NCBI GenBank assembly: GCA_963575745.1
Contig: CAUYUJ010020159.1
Span: 697,944 to 761,943 of the forward strand
Length of the DNA stretch: 64,000 bases
From: Prorocentrum cordatum
Taxonomy: Eukaryota > Sar > Dinophyceae > Prorocentrales > Prorocentraceae
Direction: 5' to 3'
This document shows, in pieces, positions 20,241 through 31,432 of this stretch. The notes under the pieces were generated by a model. The model had not been told where the DNA came from, searched no databases, and saw nothing but the letters and a program-made list of their open reading frames with translations. Both the position numbers and the translations under genes were made by a program. The first letter of the stretch is position 1. The number at the start of each line of letters is the position of its first letter.

Positions 20241-20701
20241 GCGTTGTGGAGTCTTCCCCCCCAGAGGGAGACGGATGGCGGGAGGGGAGCGTGAAGGAAG
20301 GTTCGGCCGTGGACGGGACTCCGCGGCCGATGCCTCCAGGAGGCGGGGAGGGAAGGAAGGAGGAGCAGGAAGAGGAGGGGGGAATGTGATGGGGAGGCGG
20401 AGGGGGGGAGGGGCAGGACTCCGGAGGAATTTGGGGGACGGGCTGGACGAAGCATCATGATGATGGGCGTGATGAAGAGTACGAGAAGGATGGCAAAGAG
20501 TGAAATGAAAAGAAGGGGGAGGAGCGGGAGGCGCTTGGAGGAAGAGAACGGGAACGACGAGGAGGAACAGGAGGAAAAGGAACACGGCGAATAACGAAAT
20601 CATGTGGACGATGAGGAGGGAAGTAAGGAGGATGAGGGCGAAGGCGAGGACGGCCGGAGGCTGAGAAGGGGGAGGGAGGCAGTGGGAGGAGAGGGATGGA
20701 G
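20241..20701. other. Purine-rich stretch, no recognised gene
   Basis: GGA/GGGA-rich sequence gives long spurious frames on both strands. It provides the target into which LINE B inserted. Confidence 0.5.
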
Positions 20702-20721
20702 GAGGAGGGAGTAAGATGAGG
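20702..20721 (+). repeat. Left target site duplication of LINE B
   Basis: GAGGAGGGAGTAAGATGAGG is identical over all 20 bases to 27734-27753. It ends at the base before the spliced-leader-like sequence, so it fixes the 5' boundary of the insertion. Confidence 0.9.
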
Positions 20722-20743
20722 TCCGTAGCCATGTTGGCTCAAG
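20722..20743 (+). other. Dinoflagellate spliced-leader sequence (one mismatch) at LINE B 5' end
   Basis: The 22 bases begin TCCGTAGCCAT and end TTGGCTCAAG. They match the DinoSL consensus at 21 of 22 positions; the exception is G for T at position 12. In dinoflagellates this leader is added to nuclear mRNAs by trans-splicing, so its presence in genomic DNA marks a reverse-transcribed mRNA. Confidence 0.88.
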
Positions 20744-20912
20744 TTCCATCTTCTCGAGGTGGTACAGTGACCAACGATTGTGAGCCAGCAAGTAGGAAGG
20801 TGGCTTTGCCTCGCTTGCTGGCGCTTTCTCGCTGGGCCGCCCGCCCCAAGTCTTCGATTTTGTGAGCTCCTGCTGGAGCATACTCCCCTCTGCCTCTGTG
20901 TGAGCCTTGTCA

Positions 20913-21821
20913 ATGCCTGAACATGCGCGCAGGGCCAGAAGTGACAGGTCTCCTGCCCAAAAGTCTGCCAAGATGGAGGAGCCGACAGGTGAGGAAATTG
21001 AGGCTCACGCGATGCTTGGAGACAGTCTTCCTTCTACTCCTGGTGTTCCCTCTGATGCCAAAGATCCTTGGCAGGCGGCTGACCCATGGAAGGGAAGGGG
21101 CAAAGATCCTGCTGCGCTCCCTGCCCCGCCTACTCCACCCTCGCGCGGCAGGCCTGCCAAGCGTGAGGAATCTATGTCGCAGGCAACCCCTCCTTCCAAT
21201 CCAGTCGACGTCGAGGAGCTGCTGGCTGCCTTCAAGGCGGAACTCGTCACCACTGTCGATGCCAAGTTCGATGTTGCTCGTATTGCCATGGTCGCCGACA
21301 TCACTACTCACACGTCCAATCTCGTCCGAGCTGTTGCCGCTAAACAGGAGCAAGTCAACATTCAGGTACAAGGTGAACTTCATGCCCTGCGCGCTGCACA
21401 AGAAGCCATGGAGAAATCGCAATAGGAGATGCGTACACAGATTGAGGCGATTCGCAAGGAGCTGTACATTGCGGAGCGGGCCATTCCCAGCAAATATTAT
21501 GCGGACCTCGACGTTTGGGAAAGAGACCCTGACCCATCGATCATGATCGCCATACTCTCTGCCCTCGCCTCTGCTGCTGATGTCGCGGCTGTGCTCGCAC
21601 CGTGGCTCGAGGAGGTAGACATCAAGGAGAATCAGTGGAAGCTCGTTGAAAGCGCCCCCAACAGACGATATACGACCCAGATGGCTGGCGATACGGGGGC
21701 TGCTCAACGAAAGGTACCTGCTACTCGGAGCGCCCTTCGTAATCAAGCTGGATATTGGAAAGACTGTAATGTATCGGCAACGGAGGGTGGTCGTGCCAGA
21801 ATCTACGCCGGTCACGATTAG
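20913..21821 (+). pseudogene. LINE B ORF1-like protein
   Basis: The first ATG in the long frame 3 is at 20913, 169 bases after the spliced leader (MPEHARRARSDRSP). The N-terminal half is basic and Pro-rich. Residues of about 90-200 are helical with heptad-like spacing (for example ELVTTVDAKFDVARIAMVAD, LHALRAAQEAMEKSQ), a probable coiled coil. TAG at 21423-21425 interrupts, and the frame continues QIEAIRKELYIAERAIP. After about 21650 the sense reading appears to change frame. The fold is unrecognised; the ORF1 role is inferred from its place upstream of the endonuclease. Confidence 0.55.
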
Positions 21822-22229
21822 TCTCCCAAGCAAACACGCACTGAAATTCAAACAACAAGGCTGGCAAACATTGCGAAAAACATTCATCCCCATGCGAGAA
21901 TCAAGCACAATAGGACCAAGGGCACTGTCTACTTCGAGGCTTCGAGAGTGTTCCGATGATCACGGTCCAACCTCGTGACATAATGGAGGCACGTCCGAGT
22001 CCTCTCTGGAACTATGGGTTTGTCCATGCGAGGAAGGTGGACCAGAAAACGGTGCAGGACGGTTTCGTTGCTCATTTCTATGCGATGGGAGACCAAGTCC
22101 AGTGGCGTATTTAGTCGTACCACGAATGTATGGCAAGACATCCCCAGCAACATTAACAGGGAAAGTGTGATCGGGACTTGGAAGACACCTGCTCTCCTGC
22201 ATCATCAGCCTGACATAAGAAAGAGGAAG

Positions 22230-23656
22230 TGTGACACATTTCGTGGGTTTTCCCGTGGCCAAGCTATTTTTTCTCTGCAGGAGGTTCATGGCTCTCAGGC
22301 AGAACTTGACTTTCAACGCTATCAACGCATGCTACGGTATGGCGGCATAGATTCCTTTCCGCGCTGCTGGTGGCGTGGTCCTGATTATTCCGATAATGAC
22401 AACAGCATAATTTCAAGCAGGGTTGGATGAGGAGCGCATCGTATATTCGGAGTTGATTCCTGGCCGTGCTCAGCGTCTCGCGATCAAGTCCGTTCTTCTT
22501 CATGAAGGTCATGAAGGTCAAGAGCACACTATGTGAGTCTGCTACAACATTATCAACTTTGGTCTCCCTTCCGAACAGGTGGATTCCCTGACAGCCAGGA
22601 TCGCTGCTGAGACCCAGATTGCTGCACAATGTCCAGAAAAGGGCCACAGTATTAGTTATGGGTGACTTCAATTTTTCGGCCGACGCGCCCATGCATCTTC
22701 ATGTTCCAGAGATAGACACAGGTCTTCTTGTGCAGCCTCGGCAGCGGGAGCATGGCGCCTCGCGGTGGCTCGCGCTCTCGGACCTTACGGAGCTTGACCC
22801 TGAGAAGCCGACGCGCTATACAGCTGGTGAGCACCAGTTGGCGGCTCTTGACAAAGTTTCCACATCCACGCCACAATGGATGATATTGCAATGGGATATC
22901 ACTGCGGCTGTTTTGACAGAGCCAGAACGACTATGTGTACCTGGCATCTCAGATCATGCTCCTGTCTCCATCTCCCTTCGTGGACGGCCTCAACGCCTTC
23001 GAGGCCAACGAGCTGTTTCTGCCTTCCTCTGCAAGCCCAGGGAGTTCCAGGAGATGCTCCAACTGCTGATCAGCCAGTCGGAGTTAGAGAGGGCGTCGCC
23101 GATTCCCAAGTGGCGTGAGCTTAAGAGGTTAAGAGAGGCTGCGCGACCTGCCCGTGACAAACTGGCCCGCTCTGCGACCCCACCTCTGGAGGCTCGTCTG
23201 ATCATTGTTCGCTCGATTTCGAGAGCGGTTCATTTTGTCGACGTAAAGCTTGCCTCAACTCTGCTCCCTCGCGCGCCCATTGCTAAAGATCACACGAAGC
23301 TCGACGGGGCGTCCTCCACGGTCTCGCTGCTCGCCCCCGTGGACTGTTGTCGTCAATGCGAGCAGCTGAGACGTGAGATTCAGGATGCACGAATCGAGGC
23401 TGCCCATGCTCAGGTCCGCGCGGGGCACGCCCCACATCGCGAAAAGAAGCGCCTTCGAGCGCATATGAGGGCTGAGCGACGCAGGGGGGAACTCCGGGCT
23501 CCAAGAGGCAAGGCTCTCCCGCTCCAGGGCCTCGAGGGCCCCCCCCTCTGGCGTCGCTCTCACCTCTCCCTCGGAAATGACCGGCCCTGGGGGGCCAGTG
23601 GGCCGCAGTTTTTGCATCGAATTCGGCCCCGCTCGGGCATCTTCGAACGCGCCTAG
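22230..23656 (+). pseudogene. LINE B AP-type endonuclease and linker
   Basis: Frame 3 at about 22262-22294 gives FSLQEVHGS, the LQEvHG motif with the metal-binding Glu of LINE endonucleases. In frame 2 from 22619, VLVMGDFNFSADAP supplies the Asp/Asn motif and GISDHAPVSISL (about 22943-22978) the terminal SDH catalytic triplet. Between them several frameshifts and stops occur (about 22430-22620). The rest to 23656 is an Arg/Glu-rich linker that resembles the usual endonuclease-RT spacer only by position. Confidence 0.75.
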
Positions 23657-23817
23657 AGAAGCACGTTAAGCCGTGTGATTTGTCTGAGGTTTCGCCCCCG
23701 ACGCGGGAGATAATTTAGCCTTCGATCGACTGCGCCTCGCCGGCGGCCCCAGGCCTTGACGGGCTTCCGCGCGCTGCTCAGCAGCAGACTCGTCTGGCGG
23801 GTCCCGTTCTCTTCGAT

Positions 23818-24348
23818 TTGCTTCAGGTTCTCTTGAGTGGGCATCCCCCGCCTTTTGAGCTGAATGAGCTACTTCTGGTGTTTGCCCCTAAGGGTAGACG
23901 CGCTGAAGACTCGTCGTTTGTTCTTCGCGAGCCTGCTGCCACGAGGCCACTGGCGCTCAAAAACACAGATGCCAAGATTCGTGCCTCGGCGTGCAATTAC
24001 TCCCTCAAGCCGGTTCTCACGCGTGACGCACGCCCTGGCCAGAGAGGATTCGTGGCTCAGCGGAACGTTACTCTCCTCGACACGTCTGCACGTCTTGCCA
24101 GCATGCAGCCTGCCGTGCAGGATAAGCTGCCTGCTCTGCTCTTACTGGATTTTGGAAATGCTTCCCCTCTCGCTGTCATCTCTTTCTCTGGTGTTTGCTT
24201 GAGCTCACCAATCTCCCTCTCGGCTTTCAGCATTTCGCTCGTGCAACTTATTCATTCGCTGCCGCTTCTGTAGTTTTGCAAGGCCTCTGTTCCTTTTTTT
24301 TGATTCGTTGAGTCGGGCGTCATGCAGGGTGGCCCACTTAGCGGCGCA
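23818..24348 (+). pseudogene. LINE B reverse transcriptase, N-terminal half (to motif B)
   Basis: Frame 1. FELNELLLVFAPKG then RPLALKNTDAKI (about 23950) are conserved pre-A blocks. QRGFVAQRNVTLLD precedes motif A LLLDFGNASPL (about 24142-24174), which retains the catalytic Asp. After stops at 24271 (TAG) and 24301 (TGA) the same frame reads VESGVMQGGPLSGA, a clear motif B. The protein is cut there by the satellite insert. Confidence 0.8.
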
Positions 24349-24479
24349 GTGCGGAAAGTGCGCCAGTGGGTCTCCCTGAATACACTAAAGGGGGGGGGGG
24401 TCCAGACCCCCCCCCTCCGTCCCTTGAAGGGGGGGGAGGGGGCGGGGGGGGGTCGGACCCCCCTCCCCCTCGTGTAGGG

Positions 24480-25990
24480 AGTGCGGAGTTGGGAGTAGGG
24501 AGTGGTGAGTAGTGAGTAGTGAGTTAGTGCGTAGTGAGTAGTGAGTATTGGGTAGTGAGTAGTAGTGAGTAGTGAGTATGGGTTGTGGGTAGTGAGTGGC
24601 AAGTAGGGAGTGGGGAGTGGGGAGTAGGGAGTAGTGAATACTGAGTAATTAGTGTGTACTAATAAGTGAGTAGTGAGTGGCGAGTCGTGAGTTGTGAGTA
24701 GTGAGTAGCGAGTCGCGAGTAGTGAGTACTGAGTAGGGAGTAGGGAGTAATGAGTACTGGGTAGTGAGTAATGGGTAGTGAGTAGTGAGTATGGGCAGTG
24801 GGTAGTGAGTGGCAAGTAGGGAGTCGGGAGTAGGGAGAGGGGAGTAGGGAGTAGTGAATAGTGAGTAGTTAGTGTGTATTAATAAGTGAATAGTGAGTGG
24901 CGAGTCGTGAGTTGTGAGTCGTGAGTAGCGAGTCGCGGGTAGTGAGTACTGAGTAGGGAGTAGGGAGTAGTGAGTACTGGGTAGTGAGTAGTGGGTAGTG
25001 AGTAATGGGTGGCGAGTAGTGATTAGTGAGTAGTGAGTTGTGGGTGGTGCGTAGTGCGAACTGAGTAGTGAGTGGTGAGTAGTGAGTAGTGAGTAGCGAG
25101 TAGTGAGTAGTGAGTAGCGAATAGTGAGTAGTGAGTAGTGGGTACTGAGTAGTACGTAGTGCGTAGTGAGTAGTGAGTAGTGAGTAGTAGTGAGTAGTGA
25201 TGATTAGTGAATAGAAAGTAGTGGGTAGTGGCAGTGGTAGTAAGTAGTGAGTAGCGAGTAGTGAGTAGTGAGTAGTGAGTAGTGAGTAGAGTGTAGTCAG
25301 TAGTGAGTAGTGGGTAGTGATTAGTGAGTAACGAGTAGGGAGTAGCGAGTCGTGAGTAGTGAGTAGTGAGTGCTGAGTAGGGAGTCGGGAGTAGTGAGCA
25401 GTGAGTAGTAAGAAGTGGGTCGCGAATAGTGGGTTGTGAGTAGCGATTGGTGAGTAGTGGGTCGTGAGTAGTGACTAGTGACTAGTGACTAGTGAGTTGT
25501 GACTAGTGACTAGAGACTATGTAGTGAATCGTGAGTAGGGAGTAGTATGTAGTGAGTAGTGAATAGTGAGTAGCGGGGAGTAAGTAGTGAGTATTGAGTA
25601 GCGGGTATCGGAGTAGCGAGTAGCGAGTACTGAGTACTGTGTAGTCAGTATTGTGTAGGGAGTGGGGAGTAGCGAGTAGCGAGTAGTGGGTAGTGAGTAG
25701 TGATGAGTGGGCAATGAGTAGTTAGTAGTGAGTAGTGAGTAGTGGATAGTGGGTAGTGGGTAATGAGTAGTGATTATTGAGTAGTGAATAGGGAGTAGTG
25801 AGTCGTGCTTAGTGAGTATTGAGTAGTGGGTAGTAAGGAGTGAGTAGTGAGTAGGGAGGAGGGAGTAGTGAGTAGGGAGTAGTGAGTAGCGAGTAGTGGG
25901 TGGTGGGTAGTGAGTAGTGGAGAGTGAGTAGTGAGTCGTGAGTAGCGAATAGCGAGTATTGAGTAGGGGGTAGTGAGTAGGGGGCTGGGG
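24480..25990 (+). repeat. GAGTAGT 7-bp satellite
   Basis: About 1.5 kb is built mostly of GAGTAGT, with variants such as GGGTAGT, GAGTCGT, GAGTAGC and GAGTAGG. Longer-range repeats also exist: about 24570-24740 and 24780-24950 share TAGTTAGTGTGTA and TAATAAGTGA. At the right end it grades into GGTTAGTGGTTAGGGGG sequence (about 25985-26060). Confidence 0.9.
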
Positions 25991-26060
25991 TTAGTGGTTA
26001 GGGGGTAGGGGGGCCCTCGTGACTCCCTTTGGGGCTGGGGTTAGTGGTTAGCGTTCGGAT

Positions 26061-26290
26061 TCGGGGTTTGGGTTCGGGTCAGGACTAGGGGTAGGGGTGG
26101 CGGGGTCGGGTTCCGGCGTCAAGGGGCGGCGTGGCGAAAGGGGGGGAGGGGGGGGGGGGGGTCCCCGACGACGGGTCGTGGAAAGGGGGGGGGGGGGGCC
26201 GACGACGGATCGGGGAAGGGGGAGGGGGGGGGGCCCGACGACGGATCGGGGAGGGGGGGGGGCGGGGGTCCTAACCCCCCCCCCCTTGGG
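26061..26290. repeat. G-run repeats CGACGACGGATCGGGG at right end of insert
   Basis: CCGACGACGG(A/G)TCG followed by long G runs occurs about three times between 26165 and 26260. It ends in a C run at 26275-26285 that pairs with the G run at the left end of the insert. Confidence 0.6.
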
Positions 26291-26306
26291 GAGATCCAGC
26301 GGCGCA

Positions 26307-27617
26307 CCCTCCACAATGCGGGCCCTCTGCATGGATCCGATAGTTCGTGATGTGCGCAAGGGCTGAATGCATTCCCTGGGGCGGAGGTTGGCGCTTGTGC
26401 GGATGATGTCGGGGCGCCTCTTTGGGGCATTTAAGCTTTCGTGAACTTGACTTGGGTTTTTTGTTATGCTGCGCAGATCCCAGCGGGTCTCCGCTGGAAG
26501 CTTGAGAAGTGCAAATTGAGCCCTGCTGGTGCTGCATTCTCGTGCGAGCTAAAAGAGAGCGCGCAGAGTTTCTTATCTAAGCGAGTGCCCATGTGGGCTG
26601 ACATCCCCATGGTCGGCTGCGCTGAATATTTAGGGGTGTGGACCGGCCCGTCAGCATCGAGACCCGCGATGCGGGCGCGTAAGTGGCGCGGTGTCATGCA
26701 TGATCTTGCTGCGGCAGAGGCCGCCCCCTCAGTTGCAATCGCTCTGTGCAACTCTCGAGCGGTCTCGAAATCTGCTTATATTGCACAGCTCTCGCCAATG
26801 CCGAAATCCATTTCGAAGAGGGGGGGCTGGGCGTTGCGCCGCGTCGCTCCGTTCTTGGTCTCGCACCCGCCCTCGATCTCTCCGCATCTCGTGCGCGGCT
26901 GCGCTCATTCGTTCCGCGCTCTCGACAATTACTAATTGGCGCCCTCTCTGGTCTCGCCGTAAGCAGCAGCGTCAGCAGCGCGCGCCCATGGTCGTCAGGA
27001 CAGCAAACAACTGGCCCCCGCCGCATTGGCGCGCTCGCCCGTGCGCACAGGAATTGCATGCTGCCAGCCAGTCGTTTCCAGCCTGCCCGCGCCTGCACCA
27101 ACGTGTGTTGCATGCCCGCCACGCCCTCGCCGAAGCTCGCAACATCTTCCCAGGGGCGCCCATCCAGAGGACGACCGCCCATGGTGTGGAAGAGGCGACT
27201 TTGGTTGACTCCCTGGGAGATACGATTGCGAAGCGCATATCGAAGTGGGCCTCGAGGCCCCCGACAGCACGTGCTCTCGCGGCTCTAAATTGGCCGAAGT
27301 TGAGAGATGTCATTGTTCGAATGCCTCCAGCATGGCAGATCTCAATGCCGCGGATTCTGGCGGGGGGGTGGACGACGAAACGGCGCATGTCGCGAAGGGA
27401 CTGCCCATGCAAATTCGGATGTCTTCATGAGCTGGACGCACAAGGTCGCGACCTTAGTTGTCCCGAGCTCTGGGCGGCTGTTCTACAGATCTGGGAACCG
27501 AATGACCCGATCGAGACATTCCTTGATCGCAGGCTTGCTTTGTCGGCGAAGATGACAGATGATCAGCGCAAGCTAGTCGCCCAGAGAGTTGTAGTCGCTT
27601 ATCATATGTATCAATAA
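26307..27617 (+). pseudogene. LINE B reverse transcriptase C-terminal half and Cys-rich tail
   Basis: Right after the insert, frame 3 reads PSTMRALCMDPIVRDV, which continues motif B. Motif C is ACADDVG at 26393-26413 in frame 2. The thumb (LRWKLEKCKLSPAGAAF, then WADIPMVGCAEYLGVW) follows to about 26935. Frame 3 from 26691 to the TAA at 27615-27617 carries the C-terminal part, including WPKLRDVIVRMPPAWQ and a CPCKFGC cluster (about 27400-27425). A further Cys-rich stretch (about 27620-27680) lies just beyond the stop. No RNase H is seen. Confidence 0.75.
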
Positions 27618-27733
27618 TGTAAAGAATGCTACGATCGCCACCCCGATCGCCGAGTGTGCGAGGGCTGCTCGTGCCCAATTGCTCCAACAGTTTAAGGGAG
27701 AGGACTAATCGAACCTCATTCCGAGCTACGCGC

Positions 27734-27753
27734 GAGGAGGGAGTAAGATGAGG
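27734..27753 (+). repeat. Right target site duplication of LINE B
   Basis: This is a 20/20 match to 20702-20721. The bases outside the pair differ (G versus C on the left side; T versus A on the right side), so the repeat is exactly 20 bp. Confidence 0.9.
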
Positions 27754-28330
27754 AGGGGGAGGAGGAATAAGAGGAAGAGGAAGATAAATGATATGACGAC
27801 GATGAGGAGGTGGAGGAGGAGGAGGAGGAAGAGGAGGAGGAGAGGGAGCAGGAGGAGGAGGAGGAGGAGTGCAAACTCAAGACGCATCAACGGTGCTGTA
27901 AAGAAACAGCCTTCCAAGTTCCGTCGCACTAGTTCCCTGAAAGAAAGTAGATTCCTTCGTTGCGGGAAGTTGCCCATGCGAAGACAACCGCTTGAGAATC
28001 CTAGACCCTGCCGAAACACCGGTCTGGGGACTTCCAACGCTGCAGGTCAACGCGACTGGTGCGTCCTGACAATCCGAAACCGTGCCATAATTTCATTTCT
28101 GGGACTTCAACGCCGCGAATCAACACGTTTGTCGCGTGCTGACATCTGTATTCCGTGCCAGAACACCATCCCTGGGACTTTGACCGAACGATTTTTTTGT
28201 GACATTGCTGCACGCGTTTATGACGAATGTGCGGGTCGCTCAGGCGAGAGCAACGTTTCTCTGCAAATGTTTGAGACGAGTGCGCGCGGCGCCAAGGCGA
28301 GAGCCATATTTTCAAAACCGCCGGCCCCCC
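27754..28330. repeat. GGA tract and a 73-75-bp tandem repeat
   Basis: 27754-27872 is GGA/GAA-rich. From 28024, 28099 and 28172 three units begin CTGGGGACTTC, CTGGGACTTC and CTGGGACTTT. They share AACGC, CGTGCTGACA or CGTCCTGACA, and CCGTGCCA. The phrase GCGCGCGGCGC then AAGGCGAGA occurs twice just after (about 28284 and 28365). Confidence 0.65.
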
Positions 28331-30102: not shown

Positions 30103-31432
30103 ATTTTCTTCAACATCAGCCACAGGACACGATCCCTGGGCTCTTCCAGCAGCGCGGGCAGGAGGAACTCCAGGGCGGGGACGATGAAGGCCACCACGAC
30201 GAGCCCCGAACACGTCGCAGGAGAAGCCGAGGATAGTACTTCGCCTTCACGTTGCGTTTGGAACGAGCGTCCAGCCGAGTACCCTTGAAACCAACTCTCT
30301 GCGCGCGGGAGCCGTACTCACAATCGTCCACAGCCTCGCGGAGAATACCCTGGGCGAAAACGAAAGGAGCTGCAGCAGCGGTGGGACCGTCACCAACGCA
30401 AGGTGTAGCATCATCATCATCATCTTCACGAGCTGGAGCTTTACGCAGCCAAGCACGGGCGACGAGATCACGAGCAAACCACCACGAAGAGCTCGAGACC
30501 CGATCGACACCATCCACATGGCCATGACGATGCGCAGTAGCAGGCGCCAGCTTGTCCAGGGGCTCGTCGGTCTGAGCCTTCGCAAGCAGGCCGCCCGCCT
30601 CCGCCTTACACTCGGATTCGGTGAACATGAGATGATCCTCACACGCGCTGGCAGGGAGGATGGACGAGTTCGGCTTGACCTCGTCCATCTGCTTGGTGAG
30701 TTGGGCCTCGGACTCGTGCGGCAACGCTGCGCCACCACCCTCAGAGCCATCCGCGGCAAGGGGGTTGACCTGCACGCAGGAAACTTGACAGCAGGCACCA
30801 ACACTTCCAGGAGGTCGTCCACGTTGCACGTACCACCTCGAAACTGATGAGCGCCAGCACCTGGAAAGAAAGGCAGAGCCTCGCGGCACAGCACTGCGGG
30901 TTGAGAGGGGGCCGACGGCGCCGCCAGCATCTCAACGTTCGTATCGCGCTGCAGCCCGCCGACCTCCGCGTGGCATTGCTCCTCGGAAGCAGGTGTCGCC
31001 GAGGGGACGCCTGAGCCTAAGCGTGGGCCCGCCTGGGCTGCGACCCATGCCTCGCGCGGGGCACCAGCACTCGGGCAAGCCGCTGCATGCCATGCAACGT
31101 TCCGTCGTAGACGACGGCCACCAGAAAGACGATCGCCAGCCACAAGGGAGCGAAGAGCAGGCCGTGCAATGTCTTCGCGTCGGGCGACCTCGTCAGCAGG
31201 GCCATGCTGAAGAGAACGCAGCCGATCCACCTCCTTGCGGAGCACGTCGATCTGGCCAAGGAGCTTCCTCACCAGGTTGTCTGCGGCGGCCCGCGCTGCC
31301 GCTGCGCCTCGAAGAGGCGGCTCCCGTAGTGACATGCCCAAGCCCCTGCAGCGCCACACTCCAGACCGGCCATGCGCGAGGGAAATGGCGACCAGGGGGC
31401 TTGAGGCCGGCTTGAGCCAAAATGGCTACGGA
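30103..31432 (-). pseudogene. Spliced-leader-headed processed retrocopy of a host mRNA
   Basis: The minus strand starts with an exact DinoSL at 31432-31411. The first ATG in a useful frame is at 31335-31333 (MSLREPPLRG), giving a helical Leu/Arg-rich N-terminus (NLVRKLLGQIDVLRKEVDRL). A shifted frame at about 31180-31080 encodes a membrane-like segment, LLFAPLWLAIVFLVAVV. Another frame (30889-30230) is Glu/Ala-rich. A third frame near 30200-30110 ends in a hydrophobic stretch, FIVPALEFLLPALLEE, vaguely like the LETM1 membrane motif. No introns are evident, and the frames need at least two indels. The product is not identified; a membrane protein is plausible. Confidence 0.55.
31411..31432 (-). 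other. Exact dinoflagellate spliced leader (relict) at 5' end of the retrocopy
   Basis: The plus strand reads CTTGAGCCAAAATGGCTACG then GA; its reverse complement equals the 22-nt DinoSL consensus, with T at the variable first base. A weaker CCGGCCTCAAG directly downstream (31410-31400) could be the stump of an older leader. Confidence 0.93.

What the first reader, a model, noticed from the sequence alone, without database searches (positions are those of the whole stretch)
20702..27753. A LINE that begins exactly with a spliced leader, inside a perfect 20-bp target duplication
Seen directly: 20702-20721 and 27734-27753 are identical over 20 bases. The base after the left copy is the first base of a 21/22 match to the DinoSL, and a LINE coding order fills the interval. 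Processed host cDNAs carrying relict leaders are known in dinoflagellates. Here the leader is the 5' terminus of the transposon itself, and the target duplication proves it entered as part of the same insertion. This implies that LINE transcripts are trans-spliced and then reverse transcribed to the very 5' end, leader included. The leader may even serve as the element's 5' UTR and be re-supplied on each cycle, which would relieve the element of an internal 5' end.
Basis: partly seen in the sequence, partly recalled or inferred. Interest (0 to 1): 0.92.

Follow-up and report, generated by a model that had tools for sequence, protein, structure and literature searches.

The report
Jumping gene starting with spliced leader
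In a dinoflagellate genome, a self-copying LINE element and its relatives begin exactly with the short "spliced leader" that the cell adds to its messenger RNAs, which suggests that their RNA was trans-spliced before being written back into DNA and that a new copy carries its own re-splicing signal with it.

Summary
Confirmed and extended. At 20702-27753 a LINE lies between exact 20-bp duplications, and its first 22 bases are the dinoflagellate spliced leader with one change. The copy is dead and carries a 1.96-kb nested insertion. Endonuclease and reverse transcriptase are supported by motifs, sister copies and a homologous protein. In the same genome, 43 of 45 loci read (window included) have the leader at the 5' end; most were found with queries holding leader bases. 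Of 13 other loci matching the body, 11 have it; two of these were found by body alone. Of 40 5' ends, 20 carry one leader and 20 a stack, 19 of those of the form left when a new leader is spliced at the old one's inner AG. Stack state changes 8 times on four small trees, 6 if only well-supported branches count. Two independent insertions share the odd G12, so renewal at every cycle is not shown. Other repeat families share leader and 5' head, but I could not show that they are LINEs. No RNA was examined. Recycled host cDNAs with relict leaders are known; my paper searches listed no LINE of this kind.

The parts
20702..20721 (+). Left target-site duplication, 20 bp, GAGGAG-rich
   Evidence: Exact copy of 27734-27753; no other exact copy in the window
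20722..20743 (+). DinoSL leader, 5' terminus of the LINE (T12G variant)
   Evidence: 21/22 to DinoSL; chance expectation 0 in 100 shuffles; same start in relatives
20744..20772 (+). Conserved 5' head TTCCATCTTCTCGAGGTGGTACAGTGACC, shared by repeat families whose bodies do not align; may contain a decayed old leader
   Evidence: Alignment A1 of 39 of the 41 heads, folds, fossil-leader test p 0.001-0.017
20788..20818 (+). 5' UTR hairpin GCAAG...CTTGC whose stem differs on both sides between families
   Evidence: Of 15 distinct rows outside family C, 10 pair 5/5, 4 pair 4/5, 1 pairs 2/5; L037 has no such hairpin
20904..21425 (+). ORF1-like reading frame (first ATG at 20913), 173 aa, no Pfam match
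   Evidence: pieces 44-59% identical in five relatives
22592..23656 (+). APE-type endonuclease region (GDFNF 22661-22675, ISDHAPV 22946-22966)
   Evidence: No direct Pfam match; 35% identity over 176 aa to P0009, which matches PF03372 at 1e-11
23719..24354 (+). Reverse transcriptase, first part (motif A DFGNA at 24148; motif B QGGPLSG at about 24325)
   Evidence: RVT_1 matches in sister copies L009 1.5e-6 and L012 2.6e-6, just under the gathering score
24355..26313 (.). Foreign nested insertion: imperfect terminal inverted repeats, 8-bp TSD with one mismatch (CAGTGCGG/CAATGCGG), long GAGTAGT heptamer array
   Evidence: Absent from the sister copies that span the site
26314..27617 (+). Reverse transcriptase, second part (ADD motif at about 26399) and C-terminal region
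27715..27733 (+). 3' end CTCATTCCGAGCTACGCGC, no poly(A)
   Evidence: Same kind of 3' end in 5 of 5 family-B copies read at their 3' side, window included
27734..27753 (+). Right target-site duplication, 20 bp

Best explanation
This is a dead copy of an APE-endonuclease LINE whose life cycle runs through the host's spliced-leader trans-splicing. LINE RNA gets a capped 22-nt DinoSL, spliced at an AG that the resident leader itself provides: its 3' end (CAAG|), which keeps a single leader, or its nucleotide 7 (CCGTAG|CC), which leaves a 15-nt remnant behind a fresh leader. The element's endonuclease and reverse transcriptase copy the RNA from a fixed 3' end without poly(A) to the 5' end, so the leader becomes the first 22 bp of the new copy. 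That copy again carries both acceptor sites, so host read-through transcription could suffice to re-express it, with no internal promoter. Shown: leader inside the TSD, its recurrence in relatives, stacks and their change, the fixed 3' end. Inferred: splicing of the RNA, use of the CAAG| site, read-through transcription, self-mobilisation rather than mobilisation in trans.
For: Exact 20-bp TSD abutting the leader. Leader at the 5' end of 43 of 45 loci read. Of 13 loci other than the window that match the body, 11 have it; L046 and L047, found by body alone, have an unrelated 5' UTR behind it, with protein pieces 29-53% identical to the window's. Duplications: L079 13 bp exact in non-repeat DNA; L014 18 bp with 2 mismatches, ending 2 bases before the leader; L009 17 bp with 1 mismatch in purine repeat. 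Of 40 segmentable 5' ends: 20 single, 18 double, 2 triple; in 19 of 20 stacks the extra units begin at nucleotide 8, 10 units being exactly CCATTTTGGCTCAAG. L016 has two full leaders parted by one G, as if spliced at the AG of a GAGG flank. Single/stacked changes 8 times among 26 copies in four families (6 if only well-supported branches count), no more clustered than shuffles in the three families tested. Outer leaders carry 21 edits in all; internal branches would by themselves predict 12.9 under neutral inheritance, while one edit is shared by sister copies and two recur in non-sisters of one family.
Against: No RNA data. Most relatives were found with queries that contain all or part of the leader; a leader-free whole-genome search did not complete (and earlier). 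L063/L067 (= L028/L027) share G12 with unrelated flanks. The 21 leader edits are fewer than terminal branches alone predict (39.5, p 0.0009), so selection or search bias also acts. If all three repeated edits were inherited, the case for renewal weakens to p 0.001, or 0.047 without the long D stem. A constant-chance model of stack growth fits badly (18 doubles against 9.2). L007 and L008 have no leader. The RT matches lie just under Pfam's gathering score. Families C and D, which supply many of the stacks, gave no RT or endonuclease match. L061 and L062 (= L043) share 101 bp of 5' side at 77% and may not be independent.
Confidence: 0.8

Rival explanations
1. The leader was captured once and is now a fixed, element-encoded 5' UTR or promoter, copied by reverse transcription like the rest of the element; trans-splicing onto it is an occasional event that makes the stacks.
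For: G12 shared by two independent insertions; A6G and T13G each recur within one family; leader edits fewer than terminal branches predict, as under selection; PMC6050394 (passages) discusses retroposed DinoSL acting as a promoter.
Against: Half of the 5' ends carry a re-splicing stack; stack state changes often; leaders stay near canonical while protein pieces fall to 29-60% identity and in L046 and L047 the 5' UTR is different. Strong selection on all 22 bases could mimic this.
Confidence: 0.22
2. Ordinary host mRNA recycling: LINE mRNAs, like any trans-spliced mRNA, were retroposed in trans by another element, so these copies are processed copies and not steps of the LINE's own cycle.
For: Recycled host cDNAs with the same nucleotide-7 remnants are known (PMC3229502, PMC12014239, passages); a second leader in the window (31411-31431, minus) precedes an ORF without Pfam match; elements without recognised LINE domains carry the same leader stacks.
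Against: Constant 3' end without poly(A) in 5 of 5 family-B copies, each before GAGGAG-like sequence; several copies span the whole element.
Confidence: 0.13
3. Chance or artefact: a purine-repeat coincidence or chimeric assembly.
For: Flanks are GAGGAG-rich.
Against: The 20-mer contains non-repeat letters and is exact only at the two ends; the junction recurs at 43 loci, some in non-repeat DNA.
Confidence: 0.01

Closest known systems
Recycled processed cDNAs / retrogenes with DinoSL relicts in dinoflagellates (PMC3229502, PMC12014239, PMC6050394: passages; Slamovits and Keeling 2008 not held, known through these)
   Same: DinoSL at the 5' end of an inserted cDNA; truncated relicts cut after nucleotide 7 in tandem; two AG acceptor sites inside the leader
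   Different: There the cargo is host genes and the enzyme is unknown (PMC6050394 favours LTR elements). Here the cargo is a LINE, with a fixed 3' end and TSDs.
Trypanosomatid LINEs L1Tc and ingi (PMC8190864, passages)
   Same: LINEs living in a genome with polycistronic transcription and SL trans-splicing; elements share a 5' hallmark
   Different: L1Tc carries an internal promoter (Pr77) and a ribozyme, and makes unspliced transcripts. Here the 5' end is the spliced leader.
SL-containing retrotransposon annotations in Schistosoma mansoni (PMC5832876, passages)
   Same: Six transposable-element gene models contain the SL; the authors suggest trans-spliced, retro-transcribed elements
   Different: The authors do not exclude chimeric assembly; the passages I read give no termini, TSDs or families.
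dinoRNAV endogenous elements with nearby DinoSL in Symbiodinium (PMC10235124, passages)
   Same: DinoSL taken as a mark of retroposition; LINEs proposed as one possible agent
   Different: Virus-derived cargo; leader within 500 bp of 6 of 26 RdRp ORFs, not the terminus of a LINE

Membership tests
APE-type LINE (non-LTR retrotransposon) | Reverse transcriptase domain | tested here: met
   RVT_1 1.5e-6 (L009, 28.5 bits) and 2.6e-6 (L012, 27.7 bits), both just under the 29.6-bit cut-off; motifs A, B, C in the window copy (motif names recalled)
APE-type LINE (non-LTR retrotransposon) | Apurinic-type endonuclease upstream of RT | tested here: met
   No direct Pfam match; homology to P0009 (PF03372, 1e-11) over the GDFN...SDH region
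APE-type LINE (non-LTR retrotransposon) | Variable target-site duplications | tested here: met
   20 bp exact (window); L014 18 bp with 2 mismatches; L009 17 bp with 1 mismatch, in repeat; not judgeable in L012/L013 and L015
APE-type LINE (non-LTR retrotransposon) | Common 3' end shared by copies | tested here: met
   5 of 5 family-B copies read there
APE-type LINE (non-LTR retrotransposon) | Absence of long terminal repeats | not tested
   No repeat search of the element for LTRs was run
APE-type LINE (non-LTR retrotransposon) | Placement in a named LINE clade | not tested
   No reference LINE set was used
LINE status of families C and D (L080, L079) | RT or endonuclease domain | tested here: inconclusive
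   8 pieces, no RT or endonuclease family in Pfam; none against the window's family or solved structures; hhalign with the endonuclease and RT alignments not significant
Recycled DinoSL cDNA | DNA-encoded DinoSL at the 5' end | tested here: met
Recycled DinoSL cDNA | Tandem relicts truncated after nucleotide 7 | tested here: met
   19 of 40 5' ends carry such extra units; the window copy itself has a single leader
Recycled DinoSL cDNA | Derived from a host gene | tested here: not met
   The window's body is a LINE
Trypanosomatid Pr77-type LINE | 5' promoter plus HDV-like ribozyme, unspliced RNA | tested here: inconclusive
   No Rfam match at gathering score in the window; promoter and RNA not testable here

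The most novel reading that the evidence does not exclude
A class of promoterless LINEs that has outsourced 5'-end definition and capping to spliced-leader trans-splicing. Each insertion installs a leader that is at once 5' UTR, trans-splice acceptor and seed of the next leader, so any co-directional read-through revives the element; a conserved 5' RNA structure behind the leader (possibly pairing with the leader's GGCUC) serves this cycle, and these LINEs could be the machinery that recycles host cDNAs in dinoflagellates.
Probability: 0.37. Interest if true: 0.88.

Novelty: new variant of a known kind. Interest (0 to 1): 0.73.

Why it matters
Which enzyme writes dinoflagellate mRNAs back into their genomes is an open question (PMC6050394, passages: unknown, LTR elements preferred). 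A LINE whose own copies carry leaders and leader stacks makes LINE machinery a concrete candidate. It also suggests a simple way for a LINE to survive in a genome with few promoters: it inserts its own splice acceptor. The stacks are a countable record of past cycles, and full-length RNA reads can test the model directly.

Tried and rejected
Considered and rejected: chance match, purine-repeat coincidence, homology continuing upstream (alignments upstream are GAGGAG repeat; searches show unrelated flanks). SL RNA gene fragment: the leader is followed by TT, not by the GT donor I recall for SL RNA genes, and by LINE sequence; SL RNA genes themselves were not searched. Rfam gave nothing at gathering score in the window, and within 20600-28000 only seven hits below it, all in 24349-24476 or 26242-26299, at the edges of or inside the nested insertion. 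Pfam found nothing in 7 pieces of the window's broken frames. A protein search with the L009 RT piece found nothing. P0004's PF03372 lies outside the part that matches L079, so I do not use it as endonuclease evidence. P0005, from a data set labelled Pyramimonas, matches L079; origin unexplained. Attempts to show that families C and D are LINEs failed.

For that I lowered the main confidence from 0.82 to 0.80, raised the fixed-leader rival from 0.20 to 0.22 and the trans rival from 0.12 to 0.13, and lowered the novel case from 0.40 to 0.37 and the interest from 0.75 to 0.73.

Weak points: the fossil-leader reading of the head has shuffle p of 0.016 and 0.017 for two head forms and 0.001 for two variants chosen after looking. 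Head covariation in A1 is small (1 pair of 13); the second hairpin was checked by script, choosing the better of two offsets, without a phylogenetic control. The mismatch counts were entered by hand. The family-B tree holds 5 of 7 copies; L015 and L016 were left out. The single folded 5' end has z -1.86, with 11 of 200 shuffles folding as well.
Full report
What is there. The window copy lies between two identical 20-mers, 20702-20721 and 27734-27753. The 20-mer has no other exact copy in the window, and shuffles gave no match even with 3 mismatches. Base 20722 opens a 22-base stretch equal to the dinoflagellate spliced leader except for G at position 12; the 21-nt leader core (position 12 left open) is found twice in 64 kb, against none in 100 shuffles. 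The interval is a LINE: an ORF1-like frame, an endonuclease region with GDFNF and ISDHAPV, and RT motifs DFGNA, QGGPLSG and ADD. Pfam recognised none of the 7 pieces of the window's broken frames. The endonuclease is supported through P0009 (35% identity over 176 aa; PF03372 at 1e-11). The RT is supported through sister copies L009 and L012 (RVT_1 at 1.5e-6 and 2.6e-6, just under the gathering score). The RT is split by a 1.96-kb insertion (24355-26313) with its own 8-bp duplication (one mismatch) and imperfect inverted ends, absent from the sisters that span the site. The copy is dead.

The host. The window lies in a 4.13-Gb assembly. A protein search with a piece of L079 returned a Prorocentrum cordatum protein at 87% identity, and one with the window's endonuclease frame returned two more from that species at 33-41%. 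The host is probably that species; this is an inference.

Relatives in the same genome. A search with the first 979 bases gave 44 matches at 40 places, the window included; that tool scores only its best candidates, so this is a lower bound. A pattern search that included six leader bases gave 35 places. I read the 5' end at 45 distinct places: 40 and 5 more. Three further places (on C15869, C17000, C17443) were not read. Of the 45, 43 carry a leader at the 5' end; L018 keeps only the leader's 3' part, L015 has lost the head behind it, and L038 is much decayed. The two without are L007, whose homology starts 281 bases into the element, and L008, which is rearranged. Because these searches contain leader bases, I separate out the places that also match the body: 13 besides the window, of which 11 have the leader. 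Two of these, L046 and L047, were found by body sequence only (67-69% DNA identity) and have an unrelated 5' UTR behind the leader; their protein pieces are 29-53% identical to the window's (best E 4e-32 and 8e-37), and their leaders stand where the element should start. L017, L018 and L025 are also related at the protein level.

Which relatives are LINEs. Family B (window, L009, L011/L010, L013/L012, L014, L015, L016) and the five protein-level relatives L017, L018, L025, L046 and L047 are. All-against-all comparison puts 30 of 32 heads into groups that share more than 1 kb of body: B, C1, C2, D, E, F (L065 joins D at only 65%). For C and D I tested one long locus each (L080, L079): eight pieces gave no RT or endonuclease family in Pfam, and comparison with the window's family, with solved structures (one L079 piece) and with endonuclease and RT alignments gave nothing significant. 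They share leader and head; what they encode is open.

Insertion boundaries. L079, in non-repeat DNA, has an exact 13-bp duplication TTTATTTTCTCGG around an element of about 6.3 kb, leader first. In L014, GAGGAG(T/C)TATTACCAC(A/G)T is duplicated, ending 2 bases before the leader. L009 has 17 bp with 1 mismatch, in purine repeat. L012/L013 and L015 lie in GAGGAG repeat, where a duplication cannot be judged. The 3' end is constant, GCTAC(G/A)(C/T)GC, without poly(A), in 5 of 5 family-B copies, followed in each by GAGGAG-like sequence.

Leader stacks. Of 41 5' ends given to the segmentation, 40 could be cut into units: 20 have one leader, 18 two, 2 three (the script printed 20, 19 and 1, and on reading the tails I moved L043 to three). 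In 19 of the 20 stacks the extra units begin at nucleotide 8 of the leader, ten units being exactly CCATTTTGGCTCAAG: what remains when a new leader is spliced at the AG at nucleotide 7 of an old one, as described for recycled host cDNAs (PMC3229502, passages). L016 instead has two full leaders parted by one G, as expected if splicing used the AG of a GAGG flank. On trees of four families (26 copies) the single/stacked state needs 3, 1, 2 and 2 changes, or 2, 1, 2 and 1 if only well-supported branches count, and is no more clustered than shuffled labels in the three families where that was tested. A constant-chance growth model does not fit (25.8, 9.2, 3.2 expected against 20, 18, 2).

Is the leader renewed? 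Across those 26 copies the outer leaders show 21 edits; terminal branches alone predict 39.5 and internal branches 12.9 more if the leader were inherited neutrally. One edit (G12) is shared by sister copies, and two (A6G, T13G) recur in non-sisters of one family. With one inherited edit p is 4e-5, with three 0.001 (0.003 and 0.047 without the long D stem). This fits a fresh leader at most insertions, but the deficit even against terminal branches (p 0.0009) shows that selection or the leader-based search also keeps leaders intact. L063 and L067 (98.8% alike, unrelated flanks) share G12. Substitutions gather at T12G, T13G and C9A, which could be variant SL RNA genes; these were not searched.

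5' UTR. Behind the leader, families whose bodies do not align share a head of about 30 bases and a hairpin. The hairpin's stem changes on both sides (GCAAG/CTTGC, GCAGG/CCTGC, ACGGG/CCCGT, GTGGG/CCCAC, GCGGG/CCCGC); of 15 distinct rows outside family C, 10 pair fully, 4 have one mismatch and L019 pairs 2 of 5; L037 lacks it. RNAalifold pairs the leader's GG(C)UC with the head's GACC; covariation there is slight.

Literature. Passages of twelve papers were read by term search, none in full. They describe DinoSL relicts on host genes, leave the responsible enzyme open (PMC6050394), describe trypanosomatid LINEs as promoter-driven and unspliced (PMC8190864), and report possible SL-bearing retrotransposons in Schistosoma with assembly error not excluded (PMC5832876). 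Going by titles and abstracts, the lists of searches hold no paper on LINEs that begin with DinoSL; searches showed only part of their hits (10 of 944, 12 of 16, 15 of 25), and most subscription papers, among them Song 2017 and Slamovits and Keeling 2008, are not held.

Verdict. The same leader-and-head start is shared by further repeat families of unknown coding content. What it works like: mRNA recycling turned into a transposon's own cycle. What it is: a LINE variant. RNA evidence is still missing.

Noticed in passing
24355-26313: Nested insertion with imperfect inverted ends, 8-bp duplication CAGTGCGG/CAATGCGG and about 214 copies of a GAGTAGT heptamer; looks like a non-autonomous cut-and-paste element (hAT-like 8-bp duplication, recalled).
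   Followed up: partly
31411-31431 (minus strand): A second, perfect leader followed by a 392-aa open frame (30250-31425, minus) without Pfam match; perhaps a recycled host cDNA.
   Followed up: partly
L001-L078, 5' junctions: 18 of 40 insertion flanks end in GG just before the leader, also in non-repeat flanks such as L019, L020 and L021; could reflect pairing of the target with bases added opposite the cap.
   Followed up: no
20733 and relatives: Leader substitutions gather at T12G, T13G and C9A, suggesting variant SL RNA genes or a copying bias.
   Followed up: no
20744-20758: The conserved head CCATCTTCTC(G/A)AG resembles a decayed 15-nt leader remnant, so the 5' UTR may itself hold an old leader.
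   Followed up: partly
L076 (C15134), upstream of the leader: Further head-like and leader-like pieces lie in tandem upstream of the leader; composite not resolved.
   Followed up: no
L079 (C16334), L080 (C14996): Repeat families of several kb that share leader and 5' head with the LINE but whose coding content no search identified.
   Followed up: partly
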